A model generated the notes under the pieces. The model was not told where the DNA came from, did no database searches, and was given only the letters and a program-made list of their open reading frames with translations. Positions 2,257-64,000 of a stretch of 64,000 bases of DNA are shown here, one piece after another. The translations under genes were made by a program, and so were the position numbers. How positions within the stretch are numbered: position 1 is the stretch's first letter; each line of letters starts with the position of its first letter. Origin of the DNA: Crossaster papposus (taxonomy: Eukaryota > Echinodermata > Asteroidea > Velatida > Solasteridae); NCBI GenBank assembly GCA_037893245.1, contig JBAIAA010000449.1:248001-312000 (forward strand), given 5' to 3'.

Positions 2257-2260
2257 TTAA

Positions 2261-2715: not shown

Positions 2716-3104
2716 CCCACCCTCCAGCCCCCAAAACAAACATTCCTAACACCTTCAAAAAGGAAACTTCCATGTGGGGCCTGGCCCCACCACTGGCCTG
2801 CCAAATGACTCAATTGCGTTTGACCGAAAATCGACGTTTGAAGCAACTGCTGAACTTCTGCCCGTTATTTGTTGCCAACTCCAATAAATTGAATTATACA
2901 CGGCAGAAGTTTGACAATTGAAGCATGCCCAAGCCATTCAAATTTTTTTGTATAACTTTAACTTTTGATTTAACTGTAAACAGACTTGTAAGTTTGGGGA
3001 GAAACACATTTTTGGGCTTATGGTCCCACAAGTCCTCACAAGTCGTCATAGTCCTAATTCAAGTAGGGGCTTGTACAAAAGCTTGTACAAAAGCTAGTAC
3101 CACA

Positions 3105-27256: not shown

Positions 27257-27321
27257 TCAGAAATACTGTTACGTAAAATTTAAATCTGATTTGTTTGTTT
27301 TTTTTCATATTTTTTTCTTAG

Positions 27322-41115: not shown

Positions 41116-41230
41116 GTGCAGTCAACACGTACTTTTGGACAGCTCCGTCTAAGTGTTTTCTTAACGAGTCGACGTTAAGGTTTTTTCGTGTATTATTAAT
41201 AAAAGATTATTGTAGAGTACGATCTTCATT

Positions 41231-43349: not shown

Positions 43350-43352
43350 CGC

Positions 43353-43980
43353 CATCGCGCCGAGGCGCCCCCCCCCCCCCTCCGACGGACCCGTGGGCGG
43401 CCGCCTCCAATATTTCGTAGGGTCCTGGGCTCAAGTTTCGTCCGATCGATGGGTACTCGAAACCATCAGACACGGTTACGTGTTGGAATTCACAAGTGTC
43501 CCTCCGTCGGACACATTTGTCCGCCAGAAACGAGTTCCATCAGAGCTGGCGAAACGTCGCGCTCTGGAGGAAGAGATCGAGTCTCTTCTTTCCAAGCGTG
43601 CGCTACGCGTGGTCCGGTACGGAGCCACGCCATCGGGCTTCATGTCAACCTAAATCGGCGCGGCGCTTCGCAAACGCGGTCTAGTGATATTTCAGTACCT
43701 CGACGACTGGATCGTTTTCGGCCGATCTCACTAAATCACGGCCAACGCGATCCGCGAGACCTATAGGACCTGACGGAGAGCTTGGGGTTCATCATAAACT
43801 CAGCCAAGTCTCATCCTCTTCCATCACAGTCTCCAACTTTTCTGGGCGCGAGGCTAGATCTCCGCGCGCGATTAGCCCGCCCGACAGACGAGCGTGTGGC
43901 CAATCTGCTCCAGTGTGTCAGTCTTTTCTGTCTGTTCCACTGGCCCCAGCACGTGCGGGGCTGAAATTGCTGGGTCTTAT
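43353..43980 (+). pseudogene. DIRS reverse transcriptase (deleted)
   Basis: Starts with PVGGRLQYFVGSWAQVSSD in the frame ending at 43653, the usual N-terminal entry to the DIRS RT, and proceeds to ALRVVRYGATPSGFMS. Immediately after, the frame jumps to AALRKRGLVIFQYLDDW (43660-43709), which holds the catalytic YLDD of motif C. The fingers and motif A/B region expected between them (well over 100 residues in the family) is missing, so an internal deletion occurred at about 43650. The thumb-side block LGFIINSAKSH...SPTFLGARLDL follows (43775-43860) in another frame. Inactive. Confidence 0.8.
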
Positions 43981-44482
43981 GGCCAGTATGATAGACTTGG
44001 TGGACTTTTGCAGGCTTCGAATGCGCCCAATTCAGCTCCACCTCCTCACGTTCTATCAACCCAGTCGACACCATTATCGACCATATGGTACCGACTTCAC
44101 TATGGTTAGTCCCTCACCTTCGTTGGTGGACAGTTCCCACCAACCTTACGCGAGGACGCAGATTCAGTCAGCCTCGACCATCGGTCGTCGTCACGACCGA
44201 CGCTTCACTGTCGGGCTGGGGGGCTACGTTGCCCCCCCCTATCAAGTAGCGAGGCTCTGGGATGCCGAACACCGCACATTCCACATCAACACTCTGGAAT
44301 TGATTGCGGTGTCCAGGGCTCTGGAACACTTCCTACCCTCGATCTCCGGTCGGGCAGTTTGCGTGATCCTTGCGACAACATGACTGTGGTAGCGTACATA
44401 AATCGCCAAGGGGGCACCCGGTCAGCTCGCCTTTGCGCACTGACCTGGGAACTCCTTCATTGGTCCATGCGACACAAGATTA

Positions 44483-45601
44483 GGGACTTTTCGATTTGCA
44501 CGTTTACTAGTAGACTGCGACGTATGCGGTCATTTGTGAAGCAGTGCGCATGCGCATCGACGAACTCGTCGTTCGTAGCAGAATTCTCGAACGCGTTCAA
44601 CCTTGTTTTGCCGTCGTTGGAAAACTGTGACGACATAGTGTGCATATCACTATTTTGTAGAAACGCAACACCACATCAGGAAAGAAACACCACATTTGAA
44701 GTTACAAAATGGACCCGATTGACTTGATTCTTCAAGCAGAGAGTGGTGGAAGCGTAAGTTTTTTTTTAAATTAACACATTCTCTTGTCTGTAATTTCCCT
44801 TAAATCAAAATTCTTGTAGAATAATCCATAAAATGAACACATTCTATTTATGCATCGCCAATTTGTTGCAGCACAATTATCGAGTACAGTCCTATGCACC
44901 GAAATTGGTGTTGGATCTTTAGCCATGCTTTAGCCATGCTTTATCCATGCAAGTAAAGTTGCAGGCGTATCAATTTTATACTGGCATACAAATGGCCAAT
45001 TTATCATTCAATCATCAATGAAAATCGACAGACTCGGAGGACAAAGGATAATGAAATACTCGATAGGTTGCTGTACAATTACAAATATGAATAGGGTCTA
45101 GGATCAGCCTACTTGTTGAGTAAAGAAATGTGCGCAAAAGCCAAGTTACTATTACTAGTATTATTAATATTAGTAGACTCTAGGCCTAGACCTAGAGTCT
45201 ATTATTAGTATTATTATTAAGTAAGTCAAAGCCAGAAATTTAGTGAATGTATTGCTATCACAGTATCAGAAATAAGAATTTACACTTGGGTCTTGACCTT
45301 AATAAAGTACTAATAGTAACATGAATTCTTCGTCGTCTAAATCGCCGGTGATGTATGCGAGGAGAATTTCTTCCCTAAGTCTATGGAGATTCGGCATAAT
45401 GTCTGATCTAGCTATTTAATCGAATTTCGCGCGAGCGCGCGCGCGCGCCAAACATAAGGCATGACGTCACTGAGTGAGCGTAGTCGTAGTCGTAGAAATC
45501 GAAAAGGTAAGGTACAACATTTAGCGTGCCGCATACGTCGCAGTCTACTTGTGACCGCATACGTCGCAGTCTACTAGTAAACGTGCAAATCGAAAAGTCC
45601 C
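44483..45601. mobile_element. TA-flanked inverted-repeat element inside DIRS RNase H
   Basis: Perfect inverted termini of 50 bp: GGGACTTTTCGATTTGCACG starts at 44483 and its inverse ends at 45601. TA is present on both sides (44481-44482, 45602-45603), i.e. a TA target-site duplication. 1119 bp. Next to the right TIR a 23-bp piece of it is repeated (45527-45549). Interior is AT-rich except for CpG-dense patches at both ends (44530-44610, 45425-45500). No transposase is visible. TA duplication fits Tc1/mariner or ISL2EU-type elements; superfamily not resolved. Confidence 0.9.
44709..44753 (+). other. Possible short first exon inside the TA element
   Basis: ATG followed by 14 codons (MDPIDLILQAESGGS) and a consensus donor GTAAGT at 44754. 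A pyrimidine/TTGCAG acceptor at 44871 would continue the frame for 16 codons to TAG. It may be the 5' end of the lost transposase gene or a captured host exon; no homologue recognised. Confidence 0.3.
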
Positions 45602-45753
45602 TATTGTCCTGTCAGCGACCCATCTCCCGGGCGTGGAGAATGGCACCGCCGACGCCTTGTACCGGGGTCACATCATTCCGACGGAATGGTCTCTGCTCCC
45701 TCCGGTGGTTCGGTCGATCTTCACTCTGATCGACCGGCCTCACGTCGATCTTT

Positions 45754-47008
45754 TTGCGACGTCCCTCAACAATCAACTGCCGGTTTATTGCTCGAGGTTT
45801 TCCCGACCCCAACGCCTGGCGGACAGACGCTCTAGCAATTCATTGGGACAGGCTGTTCGCTTACGCCTTCCCGCCCCTATCCCTCATCGCCCGGGTCTTG
45901 TCCAAGATCGAACAGGAGAATTGCAAGATCCTTCTGGTGGCCCCGTTTTGGCCTCGCCAACCGTGGTTTGCCAGGCTAACCAGGCTCCTCGTGTTCAGAC
46001 CCGTGATTCTTCCACGGCGTCCGGACATCCATCAACCCGATCCGTATATATATAACAGCAGACTACGTCATTTGTATAAATGGTACCGGCGTCACTCTCA
46101 CTGTCCCACCGATTCTTCTGTAGAAACAGTGGGTGATTTCCTTTTGTACCTATTTGAGAGTGGCCTATCTACGGCCACAATCAAGAATTACCGTTCAGCC
46201 ATCTCGGCGATCCATAAAGGTTTCCCGGACGGTTCCTCGATCTCTGACAACCAGGCATTGGGTCATCTTGTCCGGGGCATGTTCGTTGATCGCCCCCCGA
46301 CACGTAAACTCGTCCCTTCCTGGGACCTATTCCAGGTGCTCTCGGTCTTGCCTAGAGCACCATTCGAGCCCCTGGCCAATGCCTCGTTATTACAGCTATC
46401 GCTTAAGGTTGCCTTTCTGTTAGCAGTTGCTACCTCCAGGCGCCGTAGTGAGCTACATTCTCTTTCATTAGAGCAAGGGCACATCCGTTGGGAACCTGCC
46501 GGTGTCCGTCTGATTTCTAGGACGGGTTTCCTCTCAAAGAATCAGTCCGCTTCTTTCCTCCCGCCTGATATCTTTGTTCCAGACATTAAGTCTTTCTCAT
46601 CGATCTCGTCCGACAAGTTTTTGGTGCCCGGTCCGGGCTCTCAAATGGTACGTCGAACGAACTCGACCGTGTAGGGGTGACCTCAAGCAATTGTTCATTA
46701 CTACGGTCCCACCTTACCGACCAGCGTCCCGTGACACCATCTCTCGATGGCTTGTGACGGCTATCTGTTCGGCCCTCTCTGATTGGCCGAACGAACCTGG
46801 GTCTTCTGTCCGGGCTCACGATGTAAGATCAACATCAACCCCGTGGGCCTTCTTCAAGGGCGTTCCCATCGCAGACATCGTCAAGGCTGCTTCATGGAAA
46901 TCTGCTAGCACCTTCACGGAATGTTACCTGAAGGATGTCTTACAATCTGAGGGCATTGCTGGCAGAACCGTCCTGAAGGCTGCTGCAGCCTCATTTCGGC
47001 GTCATTAG
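45754..47008 (+). pseudogene. DIRS tyrosine recombinase
   Basis: Frame 45754-46674 continues to 47008 after a frameshift at about 46620. It begins in the RH-YR spacer (FAYAFPPLSLIARVL, LLVAPFWPRQPWFARL), then the SAM-like N-terminal part (TVGDFLLYLFESGLSTATIK, NYRSAISAIH) and the catalytic core: SRRRSELHSL (first catalytic Arg, about 46440), RAHDVRSTSTPWAF (His-x-x-Arg, 46817-46828), WKSASTFTECYL (Tyr nucleophile codon at about 46924). Ends TAG at 47006-47008. In DIRS elements this enzyme joins the circular cDNA to the chromosome. All catalytic residues are present but in two frames. Confidence 0.88.
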
Positions 47009-47914: not shown

Positions 47915-48061
47915 GGGGGGATTTGATAATACTAGCCCAGATGCTCGTTTTGAAAATCCGTTAAGCGACTGGAGCGGAGACCACAGTGCTGGAGAGTGGA
48001 AACAGTCTAAACTGGGGTTTGGAAAACGGCTCGTGTCTTTTGGGGGGTCTATTTAATTTTA

Positions 48062-48316
48062 TGGGGGTTTTCGAAACCTTTGCTTTATCTATCACTTCGC
48101 CTCCGGTTCGCTTTCGATATCCAAATCATTGAGAATCAGATAGAAATAAAAGCAAATAAAAACAATATTCGAACTGTTAGGTTAATATCAATCGATTGAA
48201 AGTTTCTGAAGCACAGCAGGCATCAGAACGTGACTGGAGTTTCCGCAGTTAGGAGCCTACAAATAAAATCGCCCTAAGCCTAAGACGAAACGAAGCCAGG
48301 GATTCGAAAAAGCCCC
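48062..48316 (-). mobile_element. MITE family G, copy 2
   Basis: GGGGGTTTTCGAAACCTTTG left, GGGATTCGAAAAAGCCCC right; inverse of 36481-36698 with extra sequence. Confidence 0.7.
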
Positions 48317-50766
48317 AAAATCTATTTTCGGCTAATGTGAGTCGAGTTATTCGGCTTCGGTTGGTCTCTGAGAAGCAAACTGAAGCGAATTATTCTAACC
48401 GTTTGCTTTATTCCACCGATTGATTGAATGTTGCTAAAGCAGTACATGCACTAAAACGTAGCTGATTCGGGAGTGTATTGATATCCTTATTAAATAAATC
48501 CAAAACGAAGCCACAATTTCGAAAGGAACTAGATTGTCAAGATCATGATTGATCCATGAGGGCGCTCTTGCACTTTTGCAGTCTTTTTTTCTTTTCCCGT
48601 AGCTAGCTAGCTATCGTTCACATGTTCGTACAGTCTACAGTACGTTGTATGTTCGATGTTCGTACAATCATGGAGGAATAATTCCTCCATGGTACAATAA
48701 ACAACATGACCGTTGTTTATGCCACTTCAGTACTGGATCTGACATAATATATTATTATGTATACATATCCTCTGGTTGTCTCAATTTTGTATGTGGACAA
48801 TAAAGTGAAGTGAAGTGAAGTGAAGTGAAGCAAGATGCCATACCAAAATTGGACTTGTTATGAAATTGAAATGCCTTCTTGGACTTGGGACGATCCATTT
48901 ATAAAATAATTTAAACAAGCTAGAAGGCAAACTTGACATAAACTACTTGACCATTATTATGAGGCATGTAGTACATACACGTGACATGTACAAGCACATT
49001 TGTACACTACATGCATGTAACTGTACAAGTACATGCATACAGATTCTACTTTGTGTATTTTAGGGAAAGTCCCTTCTTGTTTTACACTAGCATAGGGGAT
49101 TTCCCCGAGGTTAATGAGAAATGCTCATAAATATTTATAACTTGCTGGCAACAGCCAATTGTACTTCAGTTGTGTGGTCACATGACAGCAGTCACTCATG
49201 TGGTTTGGTTGCAAAGGGATTTTTTTTTATATGGAGCCTTGGAGGCTTAACAATTCTCTCAATTTTGTTGTGGGGGCAGATCAGAATTCTGCCCATTGAC
49301 TAGTGCTTGGTAAGTTTGCATGTTTTTTATGTTGACACTAGTTTTACCACAGCATTAGGCTGTGTACGTCATCTATGTTACCGTAAACTGTGACTGATTA
49401 TCATTTACTTTACTTTAGTCTAGTCTGTATCCACGGTCATGTATGTTAATTGTGTATCGATTTTTGTTTCTTCTTTTAAAATTACAGGATATTTTCTCGA
49501 TACCGTGGTAGTAATTCACCTTTTTTAGTGCTGTGTTGGGTTGTTCTTGTTCCTATTAAAGTATTATTGTTACTATTTTTATTTTATATTTTTATATTTT
49601 TTTTTAGTGAGCAAAACTCAATTCATAATTTCTTTCCTATATTTTTGGTTAAACAATGTACAATTGGTTTCGTTTTTATTATTCACTAGAATTTTGATAA
49701 CTCTTTCTTGTAGGTCAGATTTATTTTTGACTTTGTGTTTTGTAACCATTCTTTCGGAAATTTCTGAATCGCACTTTGACACTTTTTAATTTTTTTAGAT
49801 AGTACCGGTACGGTACTGAGGACGCTTTTTCAGTTTTTTTGGTTTTTTTTCCTGTGTCCTGCCAAACAAAAGAGAGTTTATGACCTAATCCTTTGAGCCA
49901 GCGGAGCCCCCAAAACCTTGTAAATAGACTAGGAGCTATTGTTCCAGGGCTATACACAACCAGTGCTGAAAAACAATTTTTGGTTTATAGAACCCCCTAA
50001 TAAAAATATATGCATATAAAAATAATGGCGTGGGCATGCAGCGTGCGGCTAACTACCCATTCGCTAGAAGCGCGCACATGTACACATATCACTGTACTAG
50101 ACCGAAGCGAATAAACAATTACCGCACTTGTTTACACCAAGAGCGCGCCACAAGAACAGCTTACGCAACACCAGCAGGTCAACTGTGGCGGCTAAAACAG
50201 GAAGTGTTTTAGCTAACACCGTTCACACATCGTGTTAAAAAGATAAAACGGTCATAGTTTCAGCTAGACCCTCGATCCCTCTGACGTGTTTTAAATCCCC
50301 GTTTCAGTGGCGAGATAAAACCGATTCTGTTAAAACTAAAACTGTTCAGACATCGTTTTAGCTAAAACTTTTAACCAAATCGAGTTCAACTAGTGTTTTA
50401 AGCAAATTTAAAACGGTGTGTAAACGAACCCACCGAGTTCCTTTAACTTCGTGAAGGACGGCGTCGTTCAACCAGTGCTAATCCTCCTGAATTGCAGCCA
50501 TGGGCACTGTGGACGTGTGGCCCAGAGCATCTCTTGTCAGCTTCCCATGCTGAATCTTGTTGATCTTTGTTTCCATAGCTGTTTCAGGAGATCAGTGTAG
50601 TAAGCCTCAGTGATATTGCGACCCTTTTTAAACTTTCTGTGTAATCACCAGTTGAACTGCATGCAAATTCAGTTGAAACTGTATAGCCCATCTCCTTTGT
50701 GATACTACTTTATGTGCGCATGCGGACATTATGTGAACTTCCTCTTAACCATGGCCTAATAAACGT
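48317..50766. other. Intergenic, no gene seen
   Basis: No supported gene. Contains a GGAGGAATAATTCCTCC hairpin (48672-48688), a GTGAA tandem (48807-48833), and at 50180-50430 a patch rich in GTTTTAGCTAA/TTAAAAC motifs that may be another repeat. Confidence 0.45.
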
Positions 50767-51830
50767 GTACCCAACAGCACACGGAGGACTCTACATTTCT
50801 GCCATTGTTTACCTTTATTCCGACTCCATATATCTCTACATGGTGGCAGCGGTGGGATATGTAGAGATGGGGTCCGCTCGTAAGTCCGACGCCTCATAGG
50901 TCCGACGCCTCATTAGTCCGACAAAATACCAAATAAGGCCCATAAGTCCGACGCCTCATTGGTCCGACACCCCATAGGTCCGACGCTCCATAGGTCCGAC
51001 GCCTCGTAGGTCCGAAGCCTCATAGGTCCGACAATTAATTTTACTTTTATTTCTGTCCATAACTCCGACGCCTCATAAGTCCGACACCTCATAAGTCCGA
51101 CGCGTCGTAAGTCCGACGCGTCGTAAGTCCGACGCGTCGTAAGTCCGACGCGTCGTAAGTCCGACGCGTCGTAAGTCCGACGCGTCGTAAGTCCGACGCG
51201 TCGTAAGTCCGACGCGTCGTAAGTCCGACGCGTCGTAAGTCCGACGCGTCGTAAGTCCGACGCGTCGTAAGTCCGACGCGTCGTAAGTCCGACGCGTCGT
51301 AAGTCCGACAGTCATGAATACAAGCATTGCGATCGAAAAGTATGAAGCTGTAAGCTACAAGTTCTAAATACTTGATCTCCAGAAATATTTATACAATCTA
51401 TCTCACATAGGCCGCGAAGACCGCTTTATACACCGAATCATTGGTGAAATCGAAATATAACAATTAACGAGCTCGCGTGCAGGAGTTTACAGGGTTATGG
51501 TGGTCTGCACCCATAGACATCTAAATAATTATTTAGATGTCTATTATTTAGATGTCTATGTCTGCACCCCTAATTCGTGCTTTGCACAGTGCGCCCTCTC
51601 ACGTTTTTGCCTTGTCGGACAAATGAACCTTCTCTTATAATAGTCTATAGCTCCGACGCCTCAACAGTCCGACGCCTCATTTGTCCGACGTCGGACTTAT
51701 GGGGCGTCGGACTTATGAGGCGTCGGACTTATGAGGCGTCGGACTTACGATACGGCCCCGTAGAGATATGGAGTCGGGATATAGGGAAACAATGGCACAA
51801 ATGTAGAGTTCTCCGTGTGCTGTTAGGTAC
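50767..51830. mobile_element. Inverted-repeat element with internal 16-bp array
   Basis: Left end GTACCCAACAGCACACGGAG then GACTCTACATTT; right end is the inverse, AAATGTAGAGTTCTCCGTGT then GCTGTTAGGTAC. TIRs run at least 55 bp (through TTCCGACTCCATAT). Interior: degenerate 16-bp repeats (50880-51060), a uniform array (51061-51310), then inverse-oriented units (51655-51745), plus a palindrome at 51514-51560. No transposase. It ends 97 bp before the start codon of the next gene. Confidence 0.82.
51061..51310. repeat. 16-bp CpG-rich minisatellite
   Basis: About 15 units of TAAGTCCGACGCGTCG, nearly identical; related diverged units (TAGGTCCGACGCCTCA) flank it on both sides, those on the right in inverse orientation. 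Four CpG per unit in an otherwise CpG-poor region. Long minus-strand frames over it are repeat artefacts. Confidence 0.95.
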
Positions 51831-51927
51831 CAACTATAAGGCATACATGTACATATTATTTCTCCCTTCTTCTTTATAACCAAAGGAACAGGAGTCAGAT
51901 TGGAAGTTCAAGTGATACCTACTCAAG

Positions 51928-54357
51928 ATGGCTTTTGCATTTGATATGAGTCTGGAACAGGCTGCTGCAACTTTGAGAGAAGAACTTGTGGAGCTCTTGG
52001 AAGCAAACGGACCTTGTATAGAAGTGGAGAACCTCGGCGCACAGTACAGGAGGCATTTCAAGAAAGACCTAAACGTCAAGAAATTTGGGATGACCTCGGT
52101 CAAAACAATGGTGGCTTCGTTTGGGCACATTATAGAAACATTCTCTGTCGGGCAAAGGAAATATCTCATGATGAAAAAATTGCCAGAGGCCGCAAAAACA
52201 AAGAAGGGTGGAGCTGAAGGTGGTATCCCAGTTTATAACACCTCCGAAAGTCTGTCAAGAGTGTCAGAGCCCATCTCCGAGAGATATCAAACAAATGGCT
52301 CTTTAACACGGGGAAGGTATACATGTACCTTAAAAGACTTGAAGAAGGATTTGGTGGAGTTGCTTCAGAGTTCACCTGAGCGGCATATCGAGCTGCACTC
52401 TCTGCAAGAAACCTATGAGCGGAAGTACAAGAGAGCTCTGAACCTCACTGAACATGGTATATGGGCAGTTGATGCCATTGCCGATACATTCAGGGACACT
52501 TTTGAGATAGTCAATCAGTGCATTCACAGCAATCATCAGAAAATCCGCATTAGGCCGGACGGCATTGACGATCAACAAAATAGAGGTGTGGTGAAAAGGA
52601 ACAAGTCTAACATTTTCAGAGAAGATGTAAAAGAGTTGCTTACGAGGTATCCTAATGGTGTAAAAGTAAATGACCTTGGTAAACTGTATGGGAAAGAGTA
52701 CCACAAAAATATACCTAAGAGAACGGTGATAATAGATATGTGCGGGGATTATTTTGAACTCTTCAGTACATGCAGTAAACCCAGCCGTCAGTTTCTTCAC
52801 TTGAAACCAGGTCAGAGCAAGGCAGGTGGTGGCAAGAGAGCGAGTGATGCTGCCAGCTCAAGTGACCAATTCGCTCCCGCCAACTCTAGTCAACAACTCC
52901 CTCCCATGGTGTTCAACAACACGGGTTTGAGTCTGTTTGGAGCTGCCCCGGGGGTCAGCTACACGTACCATAGTCCACCATCAGCGGGGATCGTAGAAGG
53001 AGCAGCAGGAGGTATCGGCGGCAGCGGATCAGGTTTGTTAGGAGCCTCGCCAGCTGTAGCTGCTGTCTCACCAGTTCCGTTAATGGGTCTCCAACCAATT
53101 CCGTTAATGGGTCTCCCACCAGTTCCGTTAATGGGTCACAACCTCGGTGCCGCAACTGGAAACCCACCTACACAACCCGGGCAGGGTCTTCTTGAACCCG
53201 TGCCAGCTCAACAAAGCCAGGTTCAGCAACGGCAACCACAAAATCTGCCTGTGAAAGAATCTGCAGTTGGGCTCGTGCAACAAGAGAAAATAAAAAGTTT
53301 GCCAAAAGTGCAGCCTGTAGAAGGCAGCGGAAAGAAAAGCGGAAAGAATAGCGGTAAAAAAAGTGGAAAGAAGAAGAAAGTTGCCAGTCGTCCTTCAGAA
53401 GTTGCATTTGGAACCTTGGATGCTACTGAAATGACAGTGTTGTATCCACACCAAACACCGAGGCAAAGAGTTGCAATCAAGCAGGAACGCGTGCATCAAG
53501 AAACCCAGCCGCTGACGCCACCACCGTATTTGAAGGAACAACTGCAGGGGCAGCCCCATAAACTGAAAACCAATGTCAAGCAAATGGACACAAATCAGTG
53601 CAGTGACGACGCAGTTCCAAGTTCAAGAGACAAGCAACAGAAGCGGTCTGCATCAACCCCGCAACAGCAACAGCAATGGAAGAAATCTAGACAAGTATAT
53701 CTACCGCTGGACGAGCCCTCTGAGCATATGTATCCAGCTCTGACGTCGTCATCACAAAGCAGCGGCTCAAAGCAACAAACCCCGAAACGGAGCACTCTGA
53801 ATGCAGTGGCCCAGACCGTTATTGACAACCTTGCTGCAGCCAATGAGCTGGTGACGGTGGACCGTGTGGTGGAACTTCTCAAGCAGCAGTTTCAGGCCAG
53901 CAACTTGGAAAATCTTGGGCTGCAAAACGAAAGGCAACTGCCAGCCCTGCATCAGTTGATGAAGCTTCAGTCCAAAGTCAATGCCTTCATCCAGGCATTC
54001 GTCCAAGTCCGTGCCATCTGCACCCTCCACGAGCTCGGGGAGTCTCTAGCGATGGTGGATGCCCCTATAGGTTCTACAGAGAAGCTGGACTATGCCGACC
54101 TTCAACTAGGCCCGTTGTCCAAGCAACCTCTGGTCTATCAGTTCTTTAAGTTTCCGCCAACTAAAGATGAAGGTGACATCCCAAAGATCACAACTCTTGA
54201 TGTCATCAAGGTTCTGAACAATTTTCTGACAGAAAAAGAACTGTGGAGAACGCGTGTCAAGTTGGAGAATTTCATGGAGTACATTCTAGACGAGTATGAA
54301 ATGGAAGAACCTTATGAATTGGGCTTGCGAATCCAGAGTATTGGACTTGCCATTGCA
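51928..54357 (+). CDS. LOTUS-NOV gene, coding exon 1
   Basis: 810 codons, phase 0 end at donor GTAAGT (54358). Holds the three N-terminal LOTUS domains, a three-unit repeat of eight residues (P-V/I-P-L-M-G-x-x, 53071-53142), the lysine-rich stretch and the QQQQQ tract (53660). The open frame runs on to 54597 but the last 80 codons read an AT-rich intron. Confidence 0.9.
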
Positions 54358-57300
54358 GTAAGTATCATTTTATTTTTGAAAGTCCGTTTCTATCGGAATT
54401 ACTCTGTCACATATTTGTTTCATCTCCAACTTTACATTGAAAAAGTCTTTGCACCGAATATTAATGGTTTTCAAATTTTGTTTAATTTTGTCAATTTTCT
54501 CGCATATAAAATGCCACAGAAAAGTATTACGAATCAGGATAACCTATGTCAAAAATCAAATTATCTCCTCTTTGTTTTAAATATATCAGGCACTTAAGAC
54601 TGCCAAACGGGAACAAAAAACGACCATGGACAGGGCTCGTGAAAACCTGAAGACTTCCATGTCGGAAGAGGTGGCTGAAGCAATGGAGAAAATCCGCAAA
54701 GCCGTGATGGCGCCGGTGGACATCACCGGGCACCAGTTCCCCTCAGGGCCGCAGCTGGAAGTGCGGCGCCTCTACTGCAACACGACAGCAGCAGCCGCTG
54801 TCGACAGGGTCTTCAATAACGCCTACGAGCTGATCGCCTACAGCACGCCCCTGCGCCAGTTCTGCCCGGCACTGAGGAAAATGGTAATGGACCCGTTTAG
54901 CCGTTCGCTGTTCCAGCTGGCCATTTGTACGGGCGACCTGAGTCGACCCACTGACCTTCCAGAGGGGATTCTGGATGATGAAGATGAAGATGATGAAGAA
55001 AGTAGTCCTGAGGAGGAAAAAAGCCCAGTGAAATCACAACCGACTGCAGGTATCGCATGTTTTTTAGCACTGGATTTGTCTATGACTTCAATTTTGTCTC
55101 TGAATAATTTAGAAGCTATAAAGTCAAAAAAACTAGTGGAAGTAACCTATATTTTTGCCTTGGAATATGGGAATTTGTTCCCATTTACGGCTTAGGTATT
55201 ATGACTCGGGGAATCCTCAAGTCTGGGAGAAGGCAGAAATGAAACTGAGTTTTTGAGAAACCCTCTGTCAAAACCCTGATAAAAAGTCTGGTGTTTTTGA
55301 CATGTAACTATACTCCTTAAAATAATTGTTGATAAGAGTCTTCCTGGATCTTCCACAAATCATTACCTGTGCTGAAGCCTAACCTTGATTTTGGGCTTCA
55401 TTATATTTCGTTTGTTATTACATAGCTGGCAATAAATAGGCTCAACACTCTAGCTTATGCAGCCCGGCGCGAACTGGGCCCAATTTCTTGGCTCTGCTTA
55501 CTGTTAGCGAAAAATCCCTGCTTACAATAGCAGAAAATTTGGTGCTTACGGTAAACATATTTCACACGTTGGCGAGGAATTTTGGTCTCTGAGCATGCGT
55601 ACAACCCGTAACTAAGGATTCTGTGCTTACATTGTAAGCACATAATTTTTCTGCTAGCGCGGTTAGCAGAAAATGGTGACCGTAAGCGCGGAATTCTGTG
55701 GTTAACAGAGCCATGAAATTGGGCCCTGGTTAACATGGGTTACCAACTAAAAGTCTTGTTCTGGAATGGATGAAAAATACTATAAACTGTTTATGCTTCA
55801 ACTGTTGTCAGATATTGTACCCATATCTTTCGTGCCTGTTCCACAGTACACTTGTGCACAGTCTGCAGAACAAAATATTTACAAAGATAGACACACAAAC
55901 AAAATGGGGCGAAGCTGTCCTGTGTAAGATAAATGTAGCAAAATGACTATAATTTTTCCTAGATCAAGTCTGCGAAGAACTACAGCGTTACCTAGAACGC
56001 ATTCAGCATGGAAATGTCAATCTCAAAGACCTTGCCCGCATCGAGGCTAAACTTTGCCAGCATTTCAGCTTTCAGGATTTTGTGTCGATCAACCGAACGA
56101 AGAGAACCTTCCTACAGTTCCTCTCACTGGATCATCCAGAGGTAATCAAGTTTAGTAAGAGACTATACAATCACTATTTCTGTACATAGTCCATCCCTAT
56201 GCGTCATTTAGTTAAAGTTTCAAAAATTTGGTCTTATATTGCAAAGTTGAAGTCATGGATGCAATATTTGTAACCTTCATATTATGGTTGTGTAAAAGGT
56301 CAAGTACTGAGGTCAAAGGTGGAATTGTAAAATTATTTGCATTTGAGAACTTGCATGTTCAATTATAATAAAACTTGGGTCGTATATGCAATATGGAAAC
56401 TTGCATGTGATGGTGATATTCAGGGTCACACTGAGGTCAAAGGTCACTTGAGGTCAAGTTGTAAAATAGGGTAATCGCGAAAGTATAGACGAGATTCTTA
56501 GTTCGAGACTTTTGGTTCGAGACACTTGGTTCCATATGCATTATTAAAGTTATTGACGTATGATCTCAGGTCTGTAAAACCCCAATGCATACATTTGCAA
56601 ACGCACTTTTTTGAACTGTTGTTTGTTTCGGCATTTGCTCAGATTTTAGAGAGCATTGGCGGTACCCTGATGGGACTGGTGTCCAGTAACCCCAGCCAGG
56701 GGTCTACCTACAGACCGTCGCGCATGGACCTAGTGGAATTCATCCAACAGTGTAACCCTTGCAAAGTAGGCATTTGAAGATGTGGTACATTTTTTAATTT
56801 ATAACTCCATTAGATACTTGAAAACACCGTGTTTAGCCATTTCACTCACAGACGCTCTTTCCTGATTGGCTGTGATTGTATCACGTGATGTTGGCTATTT
56901 TCAATTGATCATCCACGCCTGAAAAGTATTGTACCCATGCCAACAGAGCTGCAACACTCGGCAGTTATTTACCCCCTTGGTCTATCTTTGATGATTCTAC
57001 CCACTCTGACATTTTATTCCCTTGGCCTAATCCTCCTTTTGTTGGTTGTTCCACTCTGTTATTTATTTTTTTGTGTTTCTTCTTCCACCATGGTTTGCAT
57101 CATGCTTGTATGTCCCCCTTTATATGTTTGTTTCATGTACACAGCCTTTTTGTCTCTGAAGAAGATCCTGTTAAGATAAAAATATTAGGCCCTCTAAACT
57201 TATTTGATTTGTATAATTTAGATCATTCCCGCCAGTAAGCAGTTTGCAGCAGTTGGAAACATATACTAGTTCTAATTTCTGCGGAAACAAAATGAGAGTT

Positions 57301-60300
57301 TAAATAAATCTCTAACTTGACCCTTTTAGGTATCTCAAGACGTCCTGGATCTCAGCCTGTGTGCCCACTACCAGGTCAGCAGCGTTGAGGAGCTAGGACA
57401 TGGGCCTCTCAATCGTCTCAGTCAACAGATCATCAAGATGGCCGCTAAACTAGGCCAGCAAGAGGAGCAAAACGCAGTCGTTTACGAGGCGGCTTTGTGT
57501 GCGTCAAATAGGTGTGACGGTTGAATTTGTGACCCAACCCAACAAAATGAGTCATTTGTAGCCACATTTACTTTTGAGTAATATAAGTAACGTTATGAGA
57601 CCAGTTCCTCTGGTTCCAGAGGGAATTCTTGGTGCTACCAGAAAGGAATACTGCACGGCAGCGAGCTATATACTCACCGGGATGACGTCACCTGGCAGCA
57701 TATCATTTTAACTTCCAGGTGGCGCTGCAGAATCGGCCAATGACGCGCTCCAATTTGCTCATGAATATTTATGAGGTGTAGTAAAATGTGACTCCAGTGT
57801 TATTTCTGAGTTAGCTAATGTGCTTGGCTTGGCTGCACGTTGACCAACAAGTTTTCTTTTCTCACTTACATTCTTTTGAAGGCAAAGTGAGAGTAAACGC
57901 AAAGAGGTCGGCTTGTTTGGCTCGCAGACCCTGGAGAGCGCCCTCGCTTGTCTGGCCTCTGCCCCCTTACTGGAGGACTTAGCCGAGTGGTCTCATTGGT
58001 CAATGGTCTTTGAACCTGAACATGGAAACCTCAAAGCATTTCTGGAGAAGGATCCTGGTATGCCATTTGTGAGATTATAATTGTGGTAGTTATTAAAGCT
58101 TTGGAATATTTTGCTGTGCTAATTTTGTGCATATAAAGCACAGTCTGAACTAAGGTTTTATTTTTGCTATAACCAGAATTTGTAATAACAGTTTGTATAA
58201 ACGAGAATTGACTGTAAATGCGTAATTTAAAACTTTTTTTTTAAGTGTACAAACTTCTGTATTATATTAAAAACTATCAGAAATCCTGTAAATCTCTTAA
58301 ACTAGTTATGCAGATATATATTTGCAGTTCAGTTGCAATTTTAGAGCTTTATAAAGAAAATGGATTTAAGAAATGAGATTTTTTTTTTTATCTTAAACTT
58401 CAGGTCAAAGTGTATCTCCACCAATCGAAATCAATGCCTTGGAGGTCCGTCCCGGCGTCCTGCTCCGATTGGCCACAGAGACGTCACCTGACCATTTTGC
58501 CTCGGCCGCAAAGGACGGCGTTGGCATCGTTGCGGTTAGCCATCTTGTCTCCCTTGTTGCCAAGGAGGGTCTTGCCAATGCCCCCCTGGCTTTGCTTAGC
58601 AACCACATGGAGACGGCTCTGAATGTTTTGGCCATAAAGTCGGAGGCGGGAGAGATGAGACACAGTGCCGTGATTGGTTTCGTGCTGGACTGCCTACTGG
58701 CCGTACCTCTTCTGATTGGACAGGCAGTTGTTAGGCAGGTCTGTAGTGACTTTTTTTTACAAAGTTTTGATCATAAATTTGATTAGATTTAATTTTAAAT
58801 AGTCCAAAATCGTTACTGAGCCGAAATGGCTCTTCATTGCCAATTCGAGCTATTTTATGCTTGTATCATCAAAGGTATAAACCCATCATCATGTGTCTGC
58901 TGTACTATAACCATTATAGCACAATTTTCCCACATTTCGATTCACCACCAGTGCAGATGCTTCACTTGACCACAATGTCCTCGACAAAAAGGCAAAGCCC
59001 AATATTATTTTCAGTAGTTTGAAATTATATAGACTGACCCTATACTCCTCTTGGTCATTGCAGGTCATCTTGAATCCCCTGACATCCGTCATCGGGTCAG
59101 AGGTCAAATCAAGACAGTTGATCCTCAAGGCCTGTCGCACTACCACCCACAGGACAAAAATCCAGAGGCTGGGGCTTCTTCTTGGCATCAGCCAATGGAA
59201 GGACAGCTTTACCGATGAAAGGATGCCCCGGAACATTGATAAGGAAGAGGACGAAGGGGAGGACGGGTTGTTCTTCATTGATTTGCTTGGGACAAATAAA
59301 GCATCTAAACCTACAGAGGTGAACATTGAGTTATTTCTCATAATGAATCAAAGGGTTTCTCAATGTTACATCTGAATTGTAGTTTTCTGTTAAAAAAACC
59401 TAAACCTATGGCACGATTTGAATGTTTATTAAGCAAGTTTTATCCTGTTTGTGAGTAGAGGCTTTTGATAGTCGGAAAATTTAAAACTCATAATATTGAC
59501 TTGTTGAGACTTTTGGTTCCTGAGATATTTGAGGCATTGATGTCCTTTGTCACACCTGCTGTAATATTAGCTCTCAGTTTTCGAACAGAAGAATTGCAGA
59601 GGTTTCACTGTAAAATCTTCCTTTTTATTCTGAATAAATGGTTGTGGAGTGTTTTTAATAAACCCAACCATTTTTTATTCGACAAGGTTCCACGTTTTTG
59701 TAAAACCGTGGTTGTCAAATCACAAGTTATAAGTCAGTCACTAGTCAATCACTAATCATCCAGTCCCATGCCAAGTCATGTCACCCCCAGTTGTGTTTTG
59801 ACTTGCAATCTTACCTGCGATAGAGGAACTCACCAAATCTCTCAAATTGTCTACAGGCGGCAGAAAGCTCTTCAGCCACAGAGGCCAGTGCCATTGACAC
59901 ACCGTCTTTTCAAGATGCCGACGAGCTGTCCCAGACATCGCTGGAGAAAGATGAGCAGAATGCAGATGCTCAAGACGTCCTTGAACTGGAGAAGATGCAA
60001 GACGAATTTGGAAATGAATCTGAACACAAACTGGACAACCTCATCCAAGCAAGTTTTGAAGATGACGAGGAGATCAGTATGGAAGTTCAAGAAGACTTAA
60101 GCGAAAGTAAGAATATCTGTGATATTGAGAATTTATCAATTGCTGATGATTTTTTGGCAGTGTGCTCAAGAAACTATTTATTTTTGGATTAAAATTTGCG
60201 CGGGATTGTTTTTCGCGAATCTTGATCCGTGAGGTGTTCAGGCCAGCATCTGTGGGTAGCACACCCTGATATTTCTGGCCTCGCTCGCTGCGAGCCGGTT

Positions 60301-63300
60301 GCTGACAGATTGCCTTGCTTCTGACGTCCGACGCAAAATGATTAAGGAAAAATAAACGTCAAAATTGATTGTTTTCTTTTTAAGGAGAGGGTGATGCTGA
60401 TGAGTCTCGGGCAGTTGGCACGGGAGAGGCAATCTTGGCTCAGGGTGAAAGTTTTAATTCGCCGCTCAAAACGGATGAACCAATCGAGATCAAGGACGAA
60501 CCAGAACCAGAACCGGAGCCTGACCTGACGCCATTCCAGCGCTCTGTGCTGGACTGTCGGGCAGTGATCCGCAGCATCTGCCGAGAGGAGTTTGGGGTGG
60601 GAGTGGAGCTGGACGAGCAGACCCAACGACTAATGGACCGGCAGAGGGAACGCATCGGTCGCAGTCTCAAGCGACTCTCGGAGGAGCTGTACAGCAAGGA
60701 TACCCACTTTGTCCTGGAGCTGATCCAGAACGCTGACGACAACGAGTACGACGCTGGGGTAGAGCCTTCCTTGGTATTTTTTGTGGACAGGTCAGTTCAC
60801 TGTGAGACTTGAAGATGTAAAACCTTTTGTTGAAATGAAAAACGTGAAAAGTACAATAAGACCCCCTTTTCACGTATTGCAAAAAAGGGCCTGATAATAG
60901 GGCCAATTGTTTACTTCTCACAGTGGTAGAGGTCAGTCTGGTAGAGGTCCCAAGATAATACTATTTTAGGCGTGGATCCAGAGGGGGAGTTTTGGGGGTC
61001 GGAACTCTCCCTCCTCCACCCCCTCCCCTCCCTAACATAATACACAAACAAACCACAAGGGATACTGACAAATTGGGAGACTGCCAACATAGGGCAAGAT
61101 AGCTCAGTTGGTATAGCCCTGGTCCGGCATTCCGGCAGTCGCAGGTTCGAGTCCCGCCTTCCAAATGTCTTTGTTTACTTTATGCAATTTATGCAAATAT
61201 ACCTAGTCAGTTTTCCCTTGTGGTTTGTGTATTATAAGATAAAAAGTCGTAGCATCAGTGAGTGATCCCCACAATGTCGCTTCCCAGGTTGTATTATAAA
61301 ATTGGGTGTGATCCCTGGCCACATGCATTCTGGTGTTTATGACTTTGACTCGCGCCCTTAAACAAAGATACTGACAATTTGGGAGACCGCCAACATAGGG
61401 CAAGATAGCGCAGTTGGTAGAACGCCGGTCCAGTATTCCGGAGGTCGCAGGTTAGAGTCTCGCCTTGCCAATTTTATTTGTTCACTTCTAAATGAAAACA
61501 AATAAAATGGTAAACTACGGTAGCAAATTCAGACTTCTGGTGCGTGAATTCTGTCTTTGTCTAAAGCTTAATATTCGTAGCCATTTATCACAGCATTCAC
61601 AACATTTGCATATCCCTGCTAACCAGACATTGATGATGTCTCGTACAGGTCAGAGGTCACAGTCTTAAACAACGAGGTCGGGTTCTCTGAGAGTAACATC
61701 CGGGCTCTCTGTGACATCGGGAGAAGCACCAAAGGCAAACACAAGAGAGGATACATAGGTAAGACGGGATTTTAGGCAAGACGGGATTTTAGGCAAGCGA
61801 CAGGGCGTATTACGATTCTAGTCTAGCTAATAATAGATCTTGAGATCTTGGGCGGTCTGTTCTTGACAAGCAAAACTTGTTCTTGTGCTCAAATGGCGGG
61901 AACGCGACCCACAGTACACCACCTATATATTGAGGTTTTCCATGAATTGAGTTTTGCCTGTCAAGAACAGACCGCCCAAATCCAGTACAGCAGTGATGCG
62001 TTTGTGTCCCTTCCGGTGAACCCTCCATTGACCCCTCCAGTGACCCCTCCTAGTTACCCATCCCAATGAACCCTTCCAGTGACCCCGCCAGTGACCACTA
62101 CCGGTGACCCCTACCGGTGACTCCGCCCAGTGACCCCGCCCAGTGACCTCTCCCGGTGACCCCTACCAGTGACCTCTCCTGGTGACCCCGCCTGTTGACC
62201 CCGCCCAGTGAGCCTTCCCAATTTTTTCTTTAATTGTCGCCAAGTGAAGGCCGGTTACTTTTTCAGGGGGTCCATTGAGAGAACATTCTTTTTATTTTCA
62301 ATTCACTATTCAGGTCACAAGGGCATTGGATTCAAGTCTGTGTTCAGAGTTACCGACAGACCGGAGATCACCTCCAAGGGCTATCATGTGTGCTTTGATC
62401 AGAGTTCTGACCAAATGGGTTACATCTTGCCCACTTGGGTGGGGCCTGAAGACATCACAGATGTGGCCCAGATGGAGGAACCTCGCAAAACGTAAGAGCT
62501 AATCATTGTCATGCAAATGGTACAGTAGATTACAATTCTCCCCAACGGACCGTGCCATTCAACCTACCCCATGAACTTTGTGACCACTAAGATCAACCGA
62601 CCATTGAAACGAAGCTTAGTGTTACTGTACAACATTTGTGAATTTCATTAATATTTATATCTGCTTGTTCACATGAATATATTTGATCAAACTGCTTGAC
62701 CTCCCGGATCACACTATACCATTGAAGGGATCAAGCTTAGTGGTAGTGCAGAATCTGTGAATTCATGAATATTCATCATTTCTGCGTGATCTCATGAATA
62801 TTTAATTAAACAGCTGGACACCGGGATCAATCGACCATTGCAAGGTTTTGTGGTTGTCCAGAATTTGTGAATTTATGAATATTCATGATATCTGCGTGAC
62901 CTCATGACTATTTATCAAATCTACATGATCTTGTGATCTCATTAATATTTACCTGAACAGCTGTTAACCCCCCCAGATTAATCGACCATTGATTGAGGCT
63001 TACTGGTACTAGTACAGAAACTTTGTGTATTTCATGAATATTCATTATATCTGCATGATCTCATGATTATTCATATCTCCATGATCTCATGAATATTCAT
63101 CATATCTACATTATGTTATGATCTCATCAATATTCTTATCTCACTATATTGTGATCTCATTAATATTCATCATATCTTCATGAATTTTAATGAATATTTA
63201 ACTCTGGACCACCCAGCTGGACCACCCAGATCACCCTTCCGTTGAAGGGAGACTTCCAACGAACAACCAGCCTGGTCAACAAGTTTGAAGACGTCCAGCC

Positions 63301-63610
63301 ATCTCTACTGCTGTTCCTGAACAGACTACGGTCAATTGTCATCGTTAACAAGGTCAGATTCTTAAGTAGAATTTTTTTTTTATAGTACAGGTACAGGTTA
63401 TAGTACAGGAAAAAGGGAAACACAACAGGGAATCCTTGAAAAAACACGACTGGATGTACTTGTTAATTGGTCGATGTGTGTTTTTAACAGGAGGAGAATT
63501 CGACCAGCCACATGAGCAGACAAGATAAAGGAGGCAACCTTGTAGAGATCCGCCACTCCAAAAACACCGACAGCTGGCTGCTCATCAAGAAATGCTTGGA
63601 TGCTACCAAG
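51928..63610 (+). CDS. LOTUS-domain / NO VEIN-like GHKL ATPase (14 exons, 3' partial)
   Basis: Fourteen coding exons with GT-AG introns keep one frame for about 1780 codons; the gene runs out of the window. Domains: LOTUS/OST-HTH winged helices at about residues 12-88, 131-213 and 228-296; a disordered Pro/Gln/Ser-rich stretch with a lysine-rich likely nuclear signal (KKSGKNSGKKSGKKKKV, about 467-485); further helical modules (about 625-760 and 1024-1083); an acidic linker; and a GHKL ATPase with N-box ELIQNADD (about 1575-1582), G1 box DIGRSTK (about 1621) and GHKGIGFKSVF (about 1636-1646). The last set is typical of NO VEIN/sacsin-like ATPases. LOTUS domains in Oskar, TDRD5/7 and MARF1 bind RNA or Vasa. 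Start: ATG with A at -3 and G at +4; an in-frame TAA lies 17 codons upstream. A role in RNA-linked ATPase function is inference; no activity is shown by sequence. Confidence 0.88.
54590..55049 (+). CDS. LOTUS-NOV gene, coding exon 2
   Basis: Acceptor ATATCAG; frame ALKTAKREQKTTMDRARENL, then EVRRLYCNTTAAAAVDRVF, and an acidic end DDEDEDDEESSPEEEKS. Donor GTATCG at 55050, phase 1. Confidence 0.88.
55476..55727. mobile_element. MITE family C, copy 4 (intron 2)
   Basis: GGGCCCAATTTCTTGGCTCT left; GAGCCATGAAATTGGGCCC right; internal GCTTAC/GTAAGC blocks. More diverged from copies 1-3. Confidence 0.75.
55963..56141 (+). CDS. LOTUS-NOV gene, coding exon 3
   Basis: Acceptor TTTTCCTAG. Frame DQVCEELQRYLERIQHGN, LKDLARIEAKLCQHFSFQDF, FLQFLSLDHPE: a further winged-helix-like module. 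Donor GTAATC, phase 0. Confidence 0.85.
56643..56765 (+). CDS. LOTUS-NOV gene, coding exon 4
   Basis: 41 codons: ILESIGGTLMGLVSSN, then RPSRMDLVEFIQQC. Acceptor TTTGCTCAG, donor GTAGGC, phase 0 at both ends. Confidence 0.82.
57330..57511 (+). CDS. LOTUS-NOV gene, coding exon 5
   Basis: VSQDVLDLSLCAHYQVSSVE, GPLNRLSQQIIKMAAKLGQQ. Acceptor CCCTTTTAG, donor GTGTGA (weaker than consensus), phase 2. Confidence 0.82.
57882..58057 (+). CDS. LOTUS-NOV gene, coding exon 6
   Basis: SKRKEVGLFGSQTLESALAC, then LEDLAEWSHWSMVFEPEHG, a block that recurs in NO VEIN-like proteins. Donor GTATGC, phase 1. Confidence 0.83.
58404..58738 (+). CDS. LOTUS-NOV gene, coding exon 7
   Basis: INALEVRPGVLLRLATETSP, DHFASAAKDGVGIVAVSHLV, and helical GFVLDCLLAVPLLIGQAVV. 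Acceptor AAACTTCAG, donor GTCTGT, phase 0. Confidence 0.85.
59064..59318 (+). CDS. LOTUS-NOV gene, coding exon 8
   Basis: 85 codons: VILNPLTSVIGSEVKSRQLI, QRLGLLLGISQWKDSF, acidic DKEEDEGEDG. Acceptor GTCATTGCAG, donor GTGAAC, phase 0. Confidence 0.85.
59857..60106 (+). CDS. LOTUS-NOV gene, coding exon 9
   Basis: Acidic, low-complexity linker (AESSSATEASAIDTPSFQDA, DNLIQASFEDDEEISMEVQE). Acceptor TTGTCTACAG, donor GTAAGA, phase 1. Confidence 0.83.
60214..60330 (-). repeat. Dispersed repeat family E, copy 3 (intron 9)
   Basis: GCATCTGTGGGTAGCACACC, CTGATATTTCTGGCCTCGCT and GCTGCGAGCC match the reverse of 22330-22420. Lies 55 bp upstream of the exon 10 acceptor. Confidence 0.75.
60385..60790 (+). 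CDS. LOTUS-NOV gene, coding exon 10 (ATPase N-box)
   Basis: Linker with an EPEPEPEP tract, then LDCRAVIRSICREEFGVGVE, RIGRSLKRLSEELYSKDTHF and VLELIQNADDNEYDAGVEPS: the GHKL N-box with the Mg-binding Asn. Acceptor TTTTTAAG, donor GTCAGT, phase 2. Confidence 0.9.
61059..61163 (+). mobile_element. tRNA-like SINE unit 1 (intron 10)
   Basis: Leader GATACTGACAAATTGGGAGA, then a tRNA-like part with A box TAGCTCAGTTGGTATAGCC and B box GGTTCGAGTCCC (61143-61154). The 3' acceptor half (CGCCTTCC) does not pair fully with GGCAAGA and the anticodon arm is irregular, so it is not called as a functional tRNA. Confidence 0.6.
61366..61471 (+). mobile_element. tRNA-like SINE unit 2 (intron 10)
   Basis: Same leader (GATACTGACAATTTGGGAGA) and tRNA-like part (TAGCGCAGTTGGTAGAACGC ... 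GGTTAGAGTCTC). Here the acceptor GGCAAG pairs with CTTGCC, better than unit 1, but the B box is mutated (TTAGA for TTCGA). Confidence 0.6.
61649..61758 (+). CDS. LOTUS-NOV gene, coding exon 11 (G1 box)
   Basis: VTVLNNEVGFSESNIRALCD, then DIGRSTKGKHKRGYIG. The Asp of the G1 box contacts the adenine in GHKL ATPases. Acceptor CGTACAG, donor GTAAGA, phase 1. Confidence 0.88.
61847..61981. mobile_element. Short foldback MITE (intron 11)
   Basis: CTTGGGCGGTCTGTTCTTGA at the left and TCAAGAACAGACCGCCCAA at the right, with CAAGCAAAACT/AGTTTTGCCTG inside the arms. About 135 bp; arms at least 30 bp and nearly perfect. Confidence 0.88.
62014..62216. repeat. GTGACCCC minisatellite (intron 11)
   Basis: About 16 degenerate units of CCAGTGACCCC(G/T)CC of 11-14 bp, ending 100 bp before the exon 12 acceptor. 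Confidence 0.85.
62314..62491 (+). CDS. LOTUS-NOV gene, coding exon 12 (G2 box)
   Basis: GHKGIGFKSVFRVTDRPEIT, then GYHVCFDQSSDQMGYILPTW. Glycine-rich ATP-lid motif. Acceptor CTATTCAG, donor GTAAGA, phase 2. Confidence 0.9.
62640..63195. repeat. Degenerate TGAATATTCAT repeats (intron 12)
   Basis: Many loosely spaced units containing ATTCATGAATATTCATNATATC and CATGATCTCATGA-like motifs (about 45-60 bp apart), AT-rich and partly palindromic; fills most of intron 12. Confidence 0.7.
63217..63352 (+). CDS. LOTUS-NOV gene, coding exon 13
   Basis: WTTQITLPLKGDFQRTTSLV, then FLNRLRSIVIVNK. The acceptor is ambiguous: CTGGACCACCCAG is duplicated in tandem (63204-63229); only the first AG (63216) keeps frame with exon 12. 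Donor GTCAGA, phase 0. Confidence 0.82.
63491..63610 (+). CDS. LOTUS-NOV gene, coding exon 14
   Basis: 40 codons: EENSTSHMSRQDKGGNLVEI, SWLLIKKCLDATK. Acceptor TTTTTAACAG, donor GTAATG, phase 0. Last exon inside the window. Confidence 0.85.
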
Positions 63611-64000
63611 GTAATGTACAATGTATACTGACAGCTCTAATTATAAAGTCAACTCGTATTGGGTGGTGTGCGGGGCTGCATATCAGAAGAGCTGGGCTCA
63701 GTTCAACAATGGATGATACTCGGACTAGCCAAAATAGGTCCCAATTGTGAATTTGGTGGAGGACAATGTGTTCTACATGTGGGTTCGATTAGTACTGTAA
63801 TCCTTTTTTTTTACTGAAAACAATTTTATGTCAATAGATATTAATGTAAACTGATACTTACCTTTGCTTTATGCACAATGACGGTCCCTTGCCAGGATTT
63901 TTTTTTTCTTTTTTTCTCACTCCTCTGGTTTCTCCTATCTATTCTTTTTACACCCCTTTCTTGTAATACTACTTATCCTCGCAACCCTCCCCCCCCCCCC
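63611..64000 (+). other. Start of intron 14, window end
   Basis: No further exon with matching phase is seen. Pyrimidine-rich from 63895 to the end (T, CT and C runs). Confidence 0.6.

What the first reader, a model, noticed from the sequence alone, without database searches (positions are those of the whole stretch)
51928..63610. LOTUS domains fused to a NO VEIN/sacsin-like GHKL ATPase
Seen: three OST-HTH/LOTUS-like modules in one large first exon and, 1300 codons later in the same continuous frame, an N-box ELIQNADD, G1 box DIGRSTK and GHKGIGFKSVF. Known: LOTUS domains bind RNA (including G-quadruplexes) and Vasa-type helicases; the C-terminal NOV domain (DUF3883) is also found next to restriction-type defence genes in prokaryotes. 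Inference: an RNA-guided or RNA-scaffolded GHKL ATPase, possibly acting in germ granules or in control of mobile elements. I know of no characterised animal protein with this architecture.
Basis: partly seen in the sequence, partly recalled or inferred. Interest (0 to 1): 0.85.

Follow-up and report, generated by a model that had tools for sequence, protein, structure and literature searches.

The report
Starfish NO VEIN protein with LOTUS domains
A sea star gene encodes a giant, widely shared but unstudied animal protein that joins three LOTUS (RNA-biology) domains to an Hsp90-like ATPase and a probable nuclease with bacterial phage-defence-like relatives, so it may be an overlooked genome-defence or RNA-surveillance machine.

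Summary
A 14-exon gene model at 51928-63610 encodes 1780 aa without a stop: three LOTUS domains, then a GHKL/sacsin-type ATPase. The gene runs off the window; the same contig supplies further exons ending in an intact NO VEIN C-terminal domain (NOV_C). Two details fail: 'DIGRSTK' is not the G1 box (NNEVGF is), and the modelled LOTUS domains lack the extension that Vasa binding requires. The architecture is not unique: this is the ortholog of 'protein NO VEIN / wu:fj29h11' (closest Patiria miniata), found in fish, hemichordates, molluscs and corals and uncharacterised in animals. Plant NO VEIN shares the rest, without LOTUS. New here: NOV-N, a confidently modelled domain without Pfam or PDB match, shared with plants; a nuclease-like D...ExK signature in NOV_C, unvaried in every ungapped row examined; and a tie to prokaryotic ATPase-NOV_C proteins that match PADLOC's TmtA (phage-defence) profiles, although sacsin matches TmtA profiles too. 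Best reading: an ATP-gated nuclease of prokaryotic, defence-like ancestry with an RNA-facing LOTUS front end added in animals. Mechanism and defence role are inferred, not shown.

The parts
51928..54357 (+). exon 1 (810 aa): three LOTUS domains, disordered linker, NOV-N domain
51952..52173 (+). LOTUS 1 (residues 9-82), no C-terminal extension in the model
52330..52551 (+). LOTUS 2 (residues 135-208), no C-terminal extension in the model
52591..52803 (+). LOTUS 3 (residues 222-292), no C-terminal extension in the model; weakest of the three
52816..53769 (+). linker predicted disordered (residues 297-614)
   Evidence: pLDDT under 50 almost throughout
53776..54357 (+). NOV-N domain (residues 617-810), shared by animals and plants, no Pfam or PDB match found
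   Evidence: AF2 pLDDT 94.3; searches; distribution
54590..55049 (+). exon 2, middle NOV core
55963..56141 (+). exon 3, middle NOV core
56643..56765 (+). exon 4, middle NOV core
57330..57511 (+). exon 5, middle NOV core
57882..58057 (+). exon 6, middle NOV core
58404..58738 (+). exon 7, middle NOV core
59064..59318 (+). exon 8, middle NOV core
59857..60106 (+). exon 9, acidic linker
60385..60790 (+). exon 10: start of the GHKL ATPase with N-box ELIQNADDN (60717-60743)
61649..61758 (+). exon 11: G1-box position LNNEVGF (61665-61685)
62314..62491 (+). exon 12: G2 box GHKGIGFKSVF (its first base is the last of exon 11)
63217..63352 (+). exon 13, ATPase
63491..63610 (+). exon 14, ATPase; the gene goes on past the window to the equivalent of 74184 on the same contig

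Best explanation
The gene is the sea star ortholog of animal protein NO VEIN (wu:fj29h11): three LOTUS domains of the minimal kind, a flexible linker, a NO VEIN core not found in the prokaryotic relatives examined (NOV-N plus middle), a GHKL/Hsp90-like ATPase module and a C-terminal restriction-enzyme-like (PD-(D/E)xK-type) NOV_C domain. Most likely it works as an ATP-gated nuclease clamp: LOTUS domains and core recognise particular RNAs or RNA-protein complexes, ATP binding closes the GHKL module, and closure licenses NOV_C to cut nucleic acid. The ATPase plus NOV_C part has prokaryotic, phage-defence-like relatives; the likeliest role in animals is surveillance or silencing of foreign or repetitive nucleic acid. 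Shown here: gene model, domains, orthology, conservation of the motifs, relation to prokaryotic proteins. Inferred: ATP use, nuclease activity, RNA binding, the coupling, and the defence role. My odds: identity about 0.95, an active nuclease about 0.6, RNA-facing LOTUS about 0.6, a defence role about 0.3.
For: Gene and domains. Orthology: 80% identity to Patiria over 1236 aa; Patiria has OST-HTH, SACS and NOV_C. LOTUS upstream of the core in 140 of 153 proteins that have NOV-N and 40 or more residues before it, the model included; reversed control 1 of 153. ATPase motifs: N-box pattern in 179 of 190 collected proteins, N-box together with the G1/G2 pattern in 174 of 190; LNNExGF in 165 of 190. 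NOV_C Asp, Glu and Lys: 141 of 143 rows from P0001-P0160 plus P0165 and P0168 (the other 2 are gaps), 18 of 18 rows from the rest of P0161-P0190 (plants, algae, metagenome), D 37 (1 gap) and E, K 38 of 38 prokaryote rows, and this gene. A published analysis calls DUF3883 a REase domain (PMC3710099, passages). Prokaryotic tie: PADLOC TmtA PDLC03972 450 bits for Patiria; 378 bits for a plant NO VEIN across 6-1292 of 1302 positions; up to 406 bits over 1196 aa to prokaryotic ORFs, 74 of 75 scoring higher with Patiria NO VEIN than with sacsin; the tree puts NO VEIN near prokaryotic and fungal rows, apart from sacsin.
Against: No expression, binding or enzyme data were at hand. A sacsin-like protein also matches TmtA profiles: of the 8 profiles that both match, each scores higher on 4 (sacsin 536 bits on PDLC03965), so TmtA is a broad label. 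The G1 position lacks the Asp and first Gly of the Hsp90-type box. NOV_C found no solved relative by sequence, so its fold was not tested. The prokaryote set was gathered with a NO VEIN-type query, which favours NO VEIN over sacsin; NOV_C was detected in only 38 of the 75 ORFs. By eye, neighbours in L018 and L028 look like housekeeping genes. Plant NO VEIN is described as a nuclear factor for cell-fate decisions (passage in PMC12289216), not as defence.
Confidence: 0.42

Rival explanations
1. A sacsin-like chaperone or scaffold: the Hsp90-like module remodels proteins in RNP granules, LOTUS domains give the address, and NOV_C is a binding domain without catalysis.
For: Pfam SACS and an NCBIfam sacsin N-terminal ATP-binding model hit the ATPase; sacsin is described as a chaperone (PMC3710099, passages); LOTUS proteins sit in germ plasm and nuage (PMC5458760, passages).
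Against: Asp, Glu and Lys of NOV_C are unvaried in all ungapped rows of three sets, which a pure binding role would not obviously demand; sacsin repeats lie apart from NO VEIN in the tree.
Confidence: 0.25
2. A nuclear developmental regulator like plant NO VEIN: a factor for cell-fate decisions, LOTUS domains acting as winged-helix nucleic-acid or protein binders, no defence role.
For: NOV-N, middle core, ATPase and NOV_C align with plant NO VEIN; [quoted passage not shown]
Against: The core is in animals, so it is not plant-specific; no shared basic (nuclear-signal-like) stretch before NOV-N: of 9 proteins looked at, 3 had none and the other 6 have it at different places; a developmental phenotype can be indirect.
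Confidence: 0.2
3. A germline Vasa/piRNA cofactor: LOTUS domains recruit Vasa to germ granules, and the ATPase acts in transposon control.
For: [quoted passage not shown] an acanthocephalan transcript annotated NO VEIN is female-biased (PMC12690905, passages).
Against: Vasa binding needs the C-terminal extension (PMC5458760); in the model each LOTUS ends with its wing, with no helix alpha5 after it.
Confidence: 0.1

Closest known systems
Protein NO VEIN / wu:fj29h11 of animals (Patiria LOC119741972, fish, molluscs, corals)
   Same: Domain order LOTUS, NOV core, SACS ATPase, NOV_C; this gene is its ortholog.
   Different: LOTUS copies vary: the family HMM found 3 here, 5 in Patiria, 5 in Asterias, and 1 to 5 in the 11 other LOTUS-positive proteins tabulated.
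Plant NO VEIN (Curcuma P0162, Erythranthe P0163)
   Same: NOV-N, middle core, ATPase and NOV_C align in the same order.
   Different: No OST-HTH match in P0162 at E 5; NOV-N starts at residue 90 (P0162) or 34 (P0163), leaving little room before it.
Prokaryotic ATPase-NOV_C proteins matched by PADLOC TmtA profiles (that TmtA means Tiamat is recalled)
   Same: GHKL ATPase through to a C-terminal D...ExK domain; near full-length profile match for plant NO VEIN.
   Different: NOV-N and the middle core gave no hit at E 0.1 in any of 80 prokaryotic loci; LOTUS was not searched there, but the ORFs of the 8 loci listed start at or near the ATPase.
Sacsin
   Same: SACS-type GHKL module.
   Different: Three ATPase repeats in the one sacsin-like protein examined (rows), which carries no OST-HTH or NOV_C label (P0189, listing); apart in the tree.
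MARF1 and TDRD5/TDRD7 LOTUS proteins
   Same: LOTUS fold; MARF1 is an endoribonuclease with multiple LOTUS domains (abstract of PMC7279887 in the listing).
   Different: Different enzyme parts; the OST-HTH founding paper (PMC2848206, parts 1 and 2 of 4 read) names fusions to LK-nuclease, Tudor and others, none to a GHKL ATPase in the parts read.

Membership tests
OST-HTH/LOTUS domain proteins | OST-HTH profile match above the gathering score | tested here: met
   61.6 bits for exon 1 against 23.8; singly 33.9, 23.6, 18.1 bits, so only LOTUS 1 passes alone
OST-HTH/LOTUS domain proteins | winged-helix fold of solved LOTUS domains | tested here: met
eLOTUS (Vasa-binding) subclass | C-terminal extension (helix alpha5) after the wing | tested here: not met
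   no helix follows a wing within the domain in the AF2 model; definition from PMC5458760, passages
NO VEIN family | SACS/GHKL ATPase with N-box and G2 box | tested here: met
   Pfam SACS 60.5 bits; motifs at residues 1575 and 1636
NO VEIN family | C-terminal NOV_C (PF13020) | tested here: met
   terminal exon on the same contig aligns in the NOV_C profile built here; ortholog P0121 61.2 bits to PF13020
NO VEIN family | shared core N-terminal of the ATPase | tested here: met
   aligns with plant and alga proteins
Tiamat-type (PADLOC TmtA) proteins | TmtA profile match | tested here: met
   450 bits on PDLC03972 for the ortholog P0121; sacsin matches the profile set too, so weakly specific
Tiamat-type (PADLOC TmtA) proteins | anti-phage or antiviral activity | not testable with these tools
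   no functional data
PD-(D/E)xK nucleases | D...ExK active-site residues | tested here: met
   present in this gene and unvaried among ungapped rows
PD-(D/E)xK nucleases | restriction-endonuclease-like fold | not tested
   no model of NOV_C was made; a PDB sequence search gave nothing convincing; DUF3883 is called a REase domain in PMC3710099 (passage)
Sacsin | groups with sacsin rather than with prokaryotic or plant NO VEIN proteins | tested here: not met
   the three repeats of one sacsin-like protein form their own group, support 100, apart from NO VEIN; quick tree, long sacsin branches

The most novel reading that the evidence does not exclude
Many animals keep an RNA-licensed genome-defence nuclease that shares ancestry with prokaryotic anti-phage ATPase-nuclease proteins: LOTUS domains read RNA, the GHKL clamp integrates the signal, and NOV_C cuts the invader or transposon; plants kept the same engine without LOTUS and came to use it in development.
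Probability: 0.2. Interest if true: 0.9.

Novelty: new variant of a known kind. Interest (0 to 1): 0.62.

Why it matters
The family reaches from corals to fish and plants, is huge and strongly conserved (ATPase part 93% identical to Patiria), and a 2025 paper states that no metazoan homolog has been characterised (PMC12690905, passages). It joins three things usually studied apart: LOTUS proteins of RNA granules, the plant developmental factor NO VEIN, and prokaryotic phage-defence-like ATPases. The nuclease signature and the ATPase give single-residue tests that would settle whether it is an enzyme and what it cuts.
Full report
Gene. Reading the + strand from 51928 gives a 14-exon model with GT-AG introns and a 1780-aa frame without stops. 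The window cuts the gene. The own genome (G000, 1.02 Gb; the window is contig C449, 248001-312000) supplied the next stretch, and tblastn with the Patiria ortholog finds further exons in order up to the equivalent of 74184, ending in NOV_C. I did not fix the splice sites beyond the window. LOTUS, ATPase and NOV_C are thus parts of one gene model, as in the orthologs.

ATPase. SACS 60.5 bits. In the 190 collected proteins the N-box pattern is in 179, and N-box together with the G1/G2 pattern in 174.

NOV_C. In an HMM-built alignment the Asp of PYD and the Glu and Lys of EVK are present in 141 of 143 rows of the mostly animal set (the other 2 are gaps; 142 proteins), in 18 of 18 rows of the plant, alga and metagenome set, in this gene, and in 37 (D, 1 gap) or 38 (E, K) of 38 prokaryotic rows found among 75 ORFs. 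Rows too divergent for the HMM would be missed. The pattern is that of PD-(D/E)xK nucleases, and DUF3883 has been called a REase domain (PMC3710099, passage). A PDB sequence search found no relative (best E 0.37).

Orthologs. The closest is Patiria miniata LOC119741972 (80% over 1236 aa), then Asterias and the hemichordate Ptychodera; that the window is from a sea star is inferred from this. Fish, sharks, lamprey, lungfish, molluscs, Oculina and Hydra follow. LOTUS domains precede NOV-N in 140 of 153 such proteins, molluscs included that Pfam's labels miss. Plant P0162 has none. Identity to Patiria rises from 54-65% in the LOTUS domains through 74% (NOV-N) and 82% (middle) to 93% (ATPase), and LOTUS copy number differs between sea stars: a variable front end on a conserved engine.

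Prokaryotic relatives. PADLOC TmtA profile PDLC03972 matches Patiria with 450 bits, its best stretch covering 1719-3006, and plant NO VEIN with 378 bits across nearly the whole profile. That TmtA stands for Tiamat is recalled; the output gives no description. Control: a sacsin-like protein also matches TmtA, and of the 8 profiles that both match each scores higher on 4 (sacsin best 536 bits on PDLC03965, 161 on PDLC03972), so TmtA is a broad label with a NO VEIN-like and a sacsin-like side. Of 75 ORFs taken from them, 74 score higher with Patiria NO VEIN than with sacsin, up to 406 bits over 1196 aa; the exception is L088. The scan was seeded with NO VEIN-type sequences, so this leans towards NO VEIN. 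In a tree of 109 rows (quick method, midpoint root, with long-branch warnings) the 18 animal, plant and algal NO VEIN rows form one group (support 90), joined by four metagenome rows (99), near proteobacterial and fungal rows (86), with sacsin repeats apart (100). Neighbourhoods: among 10 ORFs picked by eye from 5 loci were SIR2 and HerA (L014), a type I restriction subunit (L021), a phage integrase (L011), a KAP NTPase (L015) and NERD-helicases (L011, L014, L015); two ORFs of L017 had no match. By eye L018 and L028 show housekeeping neighbours. The NERD-helicase is next door in 5 of 80 loci.

Mechanism. Shown: the parts and their conservation. Inferred: ATP-driven closure of the GHKL module (general knowledge of Hsp90- and MORC-type proteins), nuclease activity of NOV_C, RNA recognition by the LOTUS domains, and their coupling. 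The defence role rests on relationship and on the variable front end, and is the weakest link.

Literature. Ten full-text searches were made, their lists capped: NO VEIN with LOTUS/OST-HTH (20 of 32 seen), OST-HTH with GHKL (20 of 339), DUF3883/sacsin/NO VEIN (1 of 1), fj29h11 (1 of 1), 'protein NO VEIN' (3 of 3), NO VEIN/Arabidopsis/Hsp90-like (10 of 91), Tiamat with NO VEIN, sacsin, DUF3883, GHKL (3 of 3), Tiamat/defense/eukaryotic (7 of 7), LOTUS/G-quadruplex/MARF1 (8 of 33), DUF3883/PF13020 (20 of 26). No title or abstract start seen there describes this architecture or a link of NO VEIN to prokaryotic defence; the library lacks most subscription journals, and the original NO VEIN and Tiamat papers were not read. 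PMC12690905 states that no metazoan homolog has been characterised (passages).

Noticed in passing
41216-47008: GC-rich block of long + strand ORFs that by eye looks like a DIRS-type retroelement: gag-like start, RNase H-like fragments and a tyrosine-recombinase-like end.
   Followed up: no
9527-10855 (-) and 22907-24028 (+): Long ORFs that by eye are LINE-type reverse transcriptase.
   Followed up: no
27114-27893 (+): 259-aa frame that by eye resembles the TNFAIP8/TIPE family.
   Followed up: no
61090-61480: Two tRNA-like, SINE-like copies (seen) in the intron between exons 10 and 11; ARAGORN calls no tRNA in 48000-64000.
   Followed up: partly
51060-51309 and 62008-62220: Tandem arrays: a 16-bp unit, 15.6 copies, upstream of the gene, and a 13/39-bp array in the intron between exons 11 and 12.
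   Followed up: no
L011, L013, L014, L015, L016: A prokaryotic NO VEIN-like ATPase gene followed directly by a helicase gene, 62-68% identical to the L011 copy in the four others, in 5 of 80 loci; NERD and helicase domains found in the three tested, L011, L014, L015: a candidate two-gene defence operon.
   Followed up: partly
P0184, P0185, P0186, P0187: Fungal proteins joining a NO VEIN-like ATPase to PF27504, two of them (P0184, P0186) with a heterokaryon-incompatibility domain PF06985 (listing); they group with proteobacterial proteins in the tree (support 91).
   Followed up: partly
G000 contigs C5 and C125: Four pairs of LOTUS matches with equal scores in the same order on both contigs, probably two haplotype copies of one multi-LOTUS gene.
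   Followed up: no
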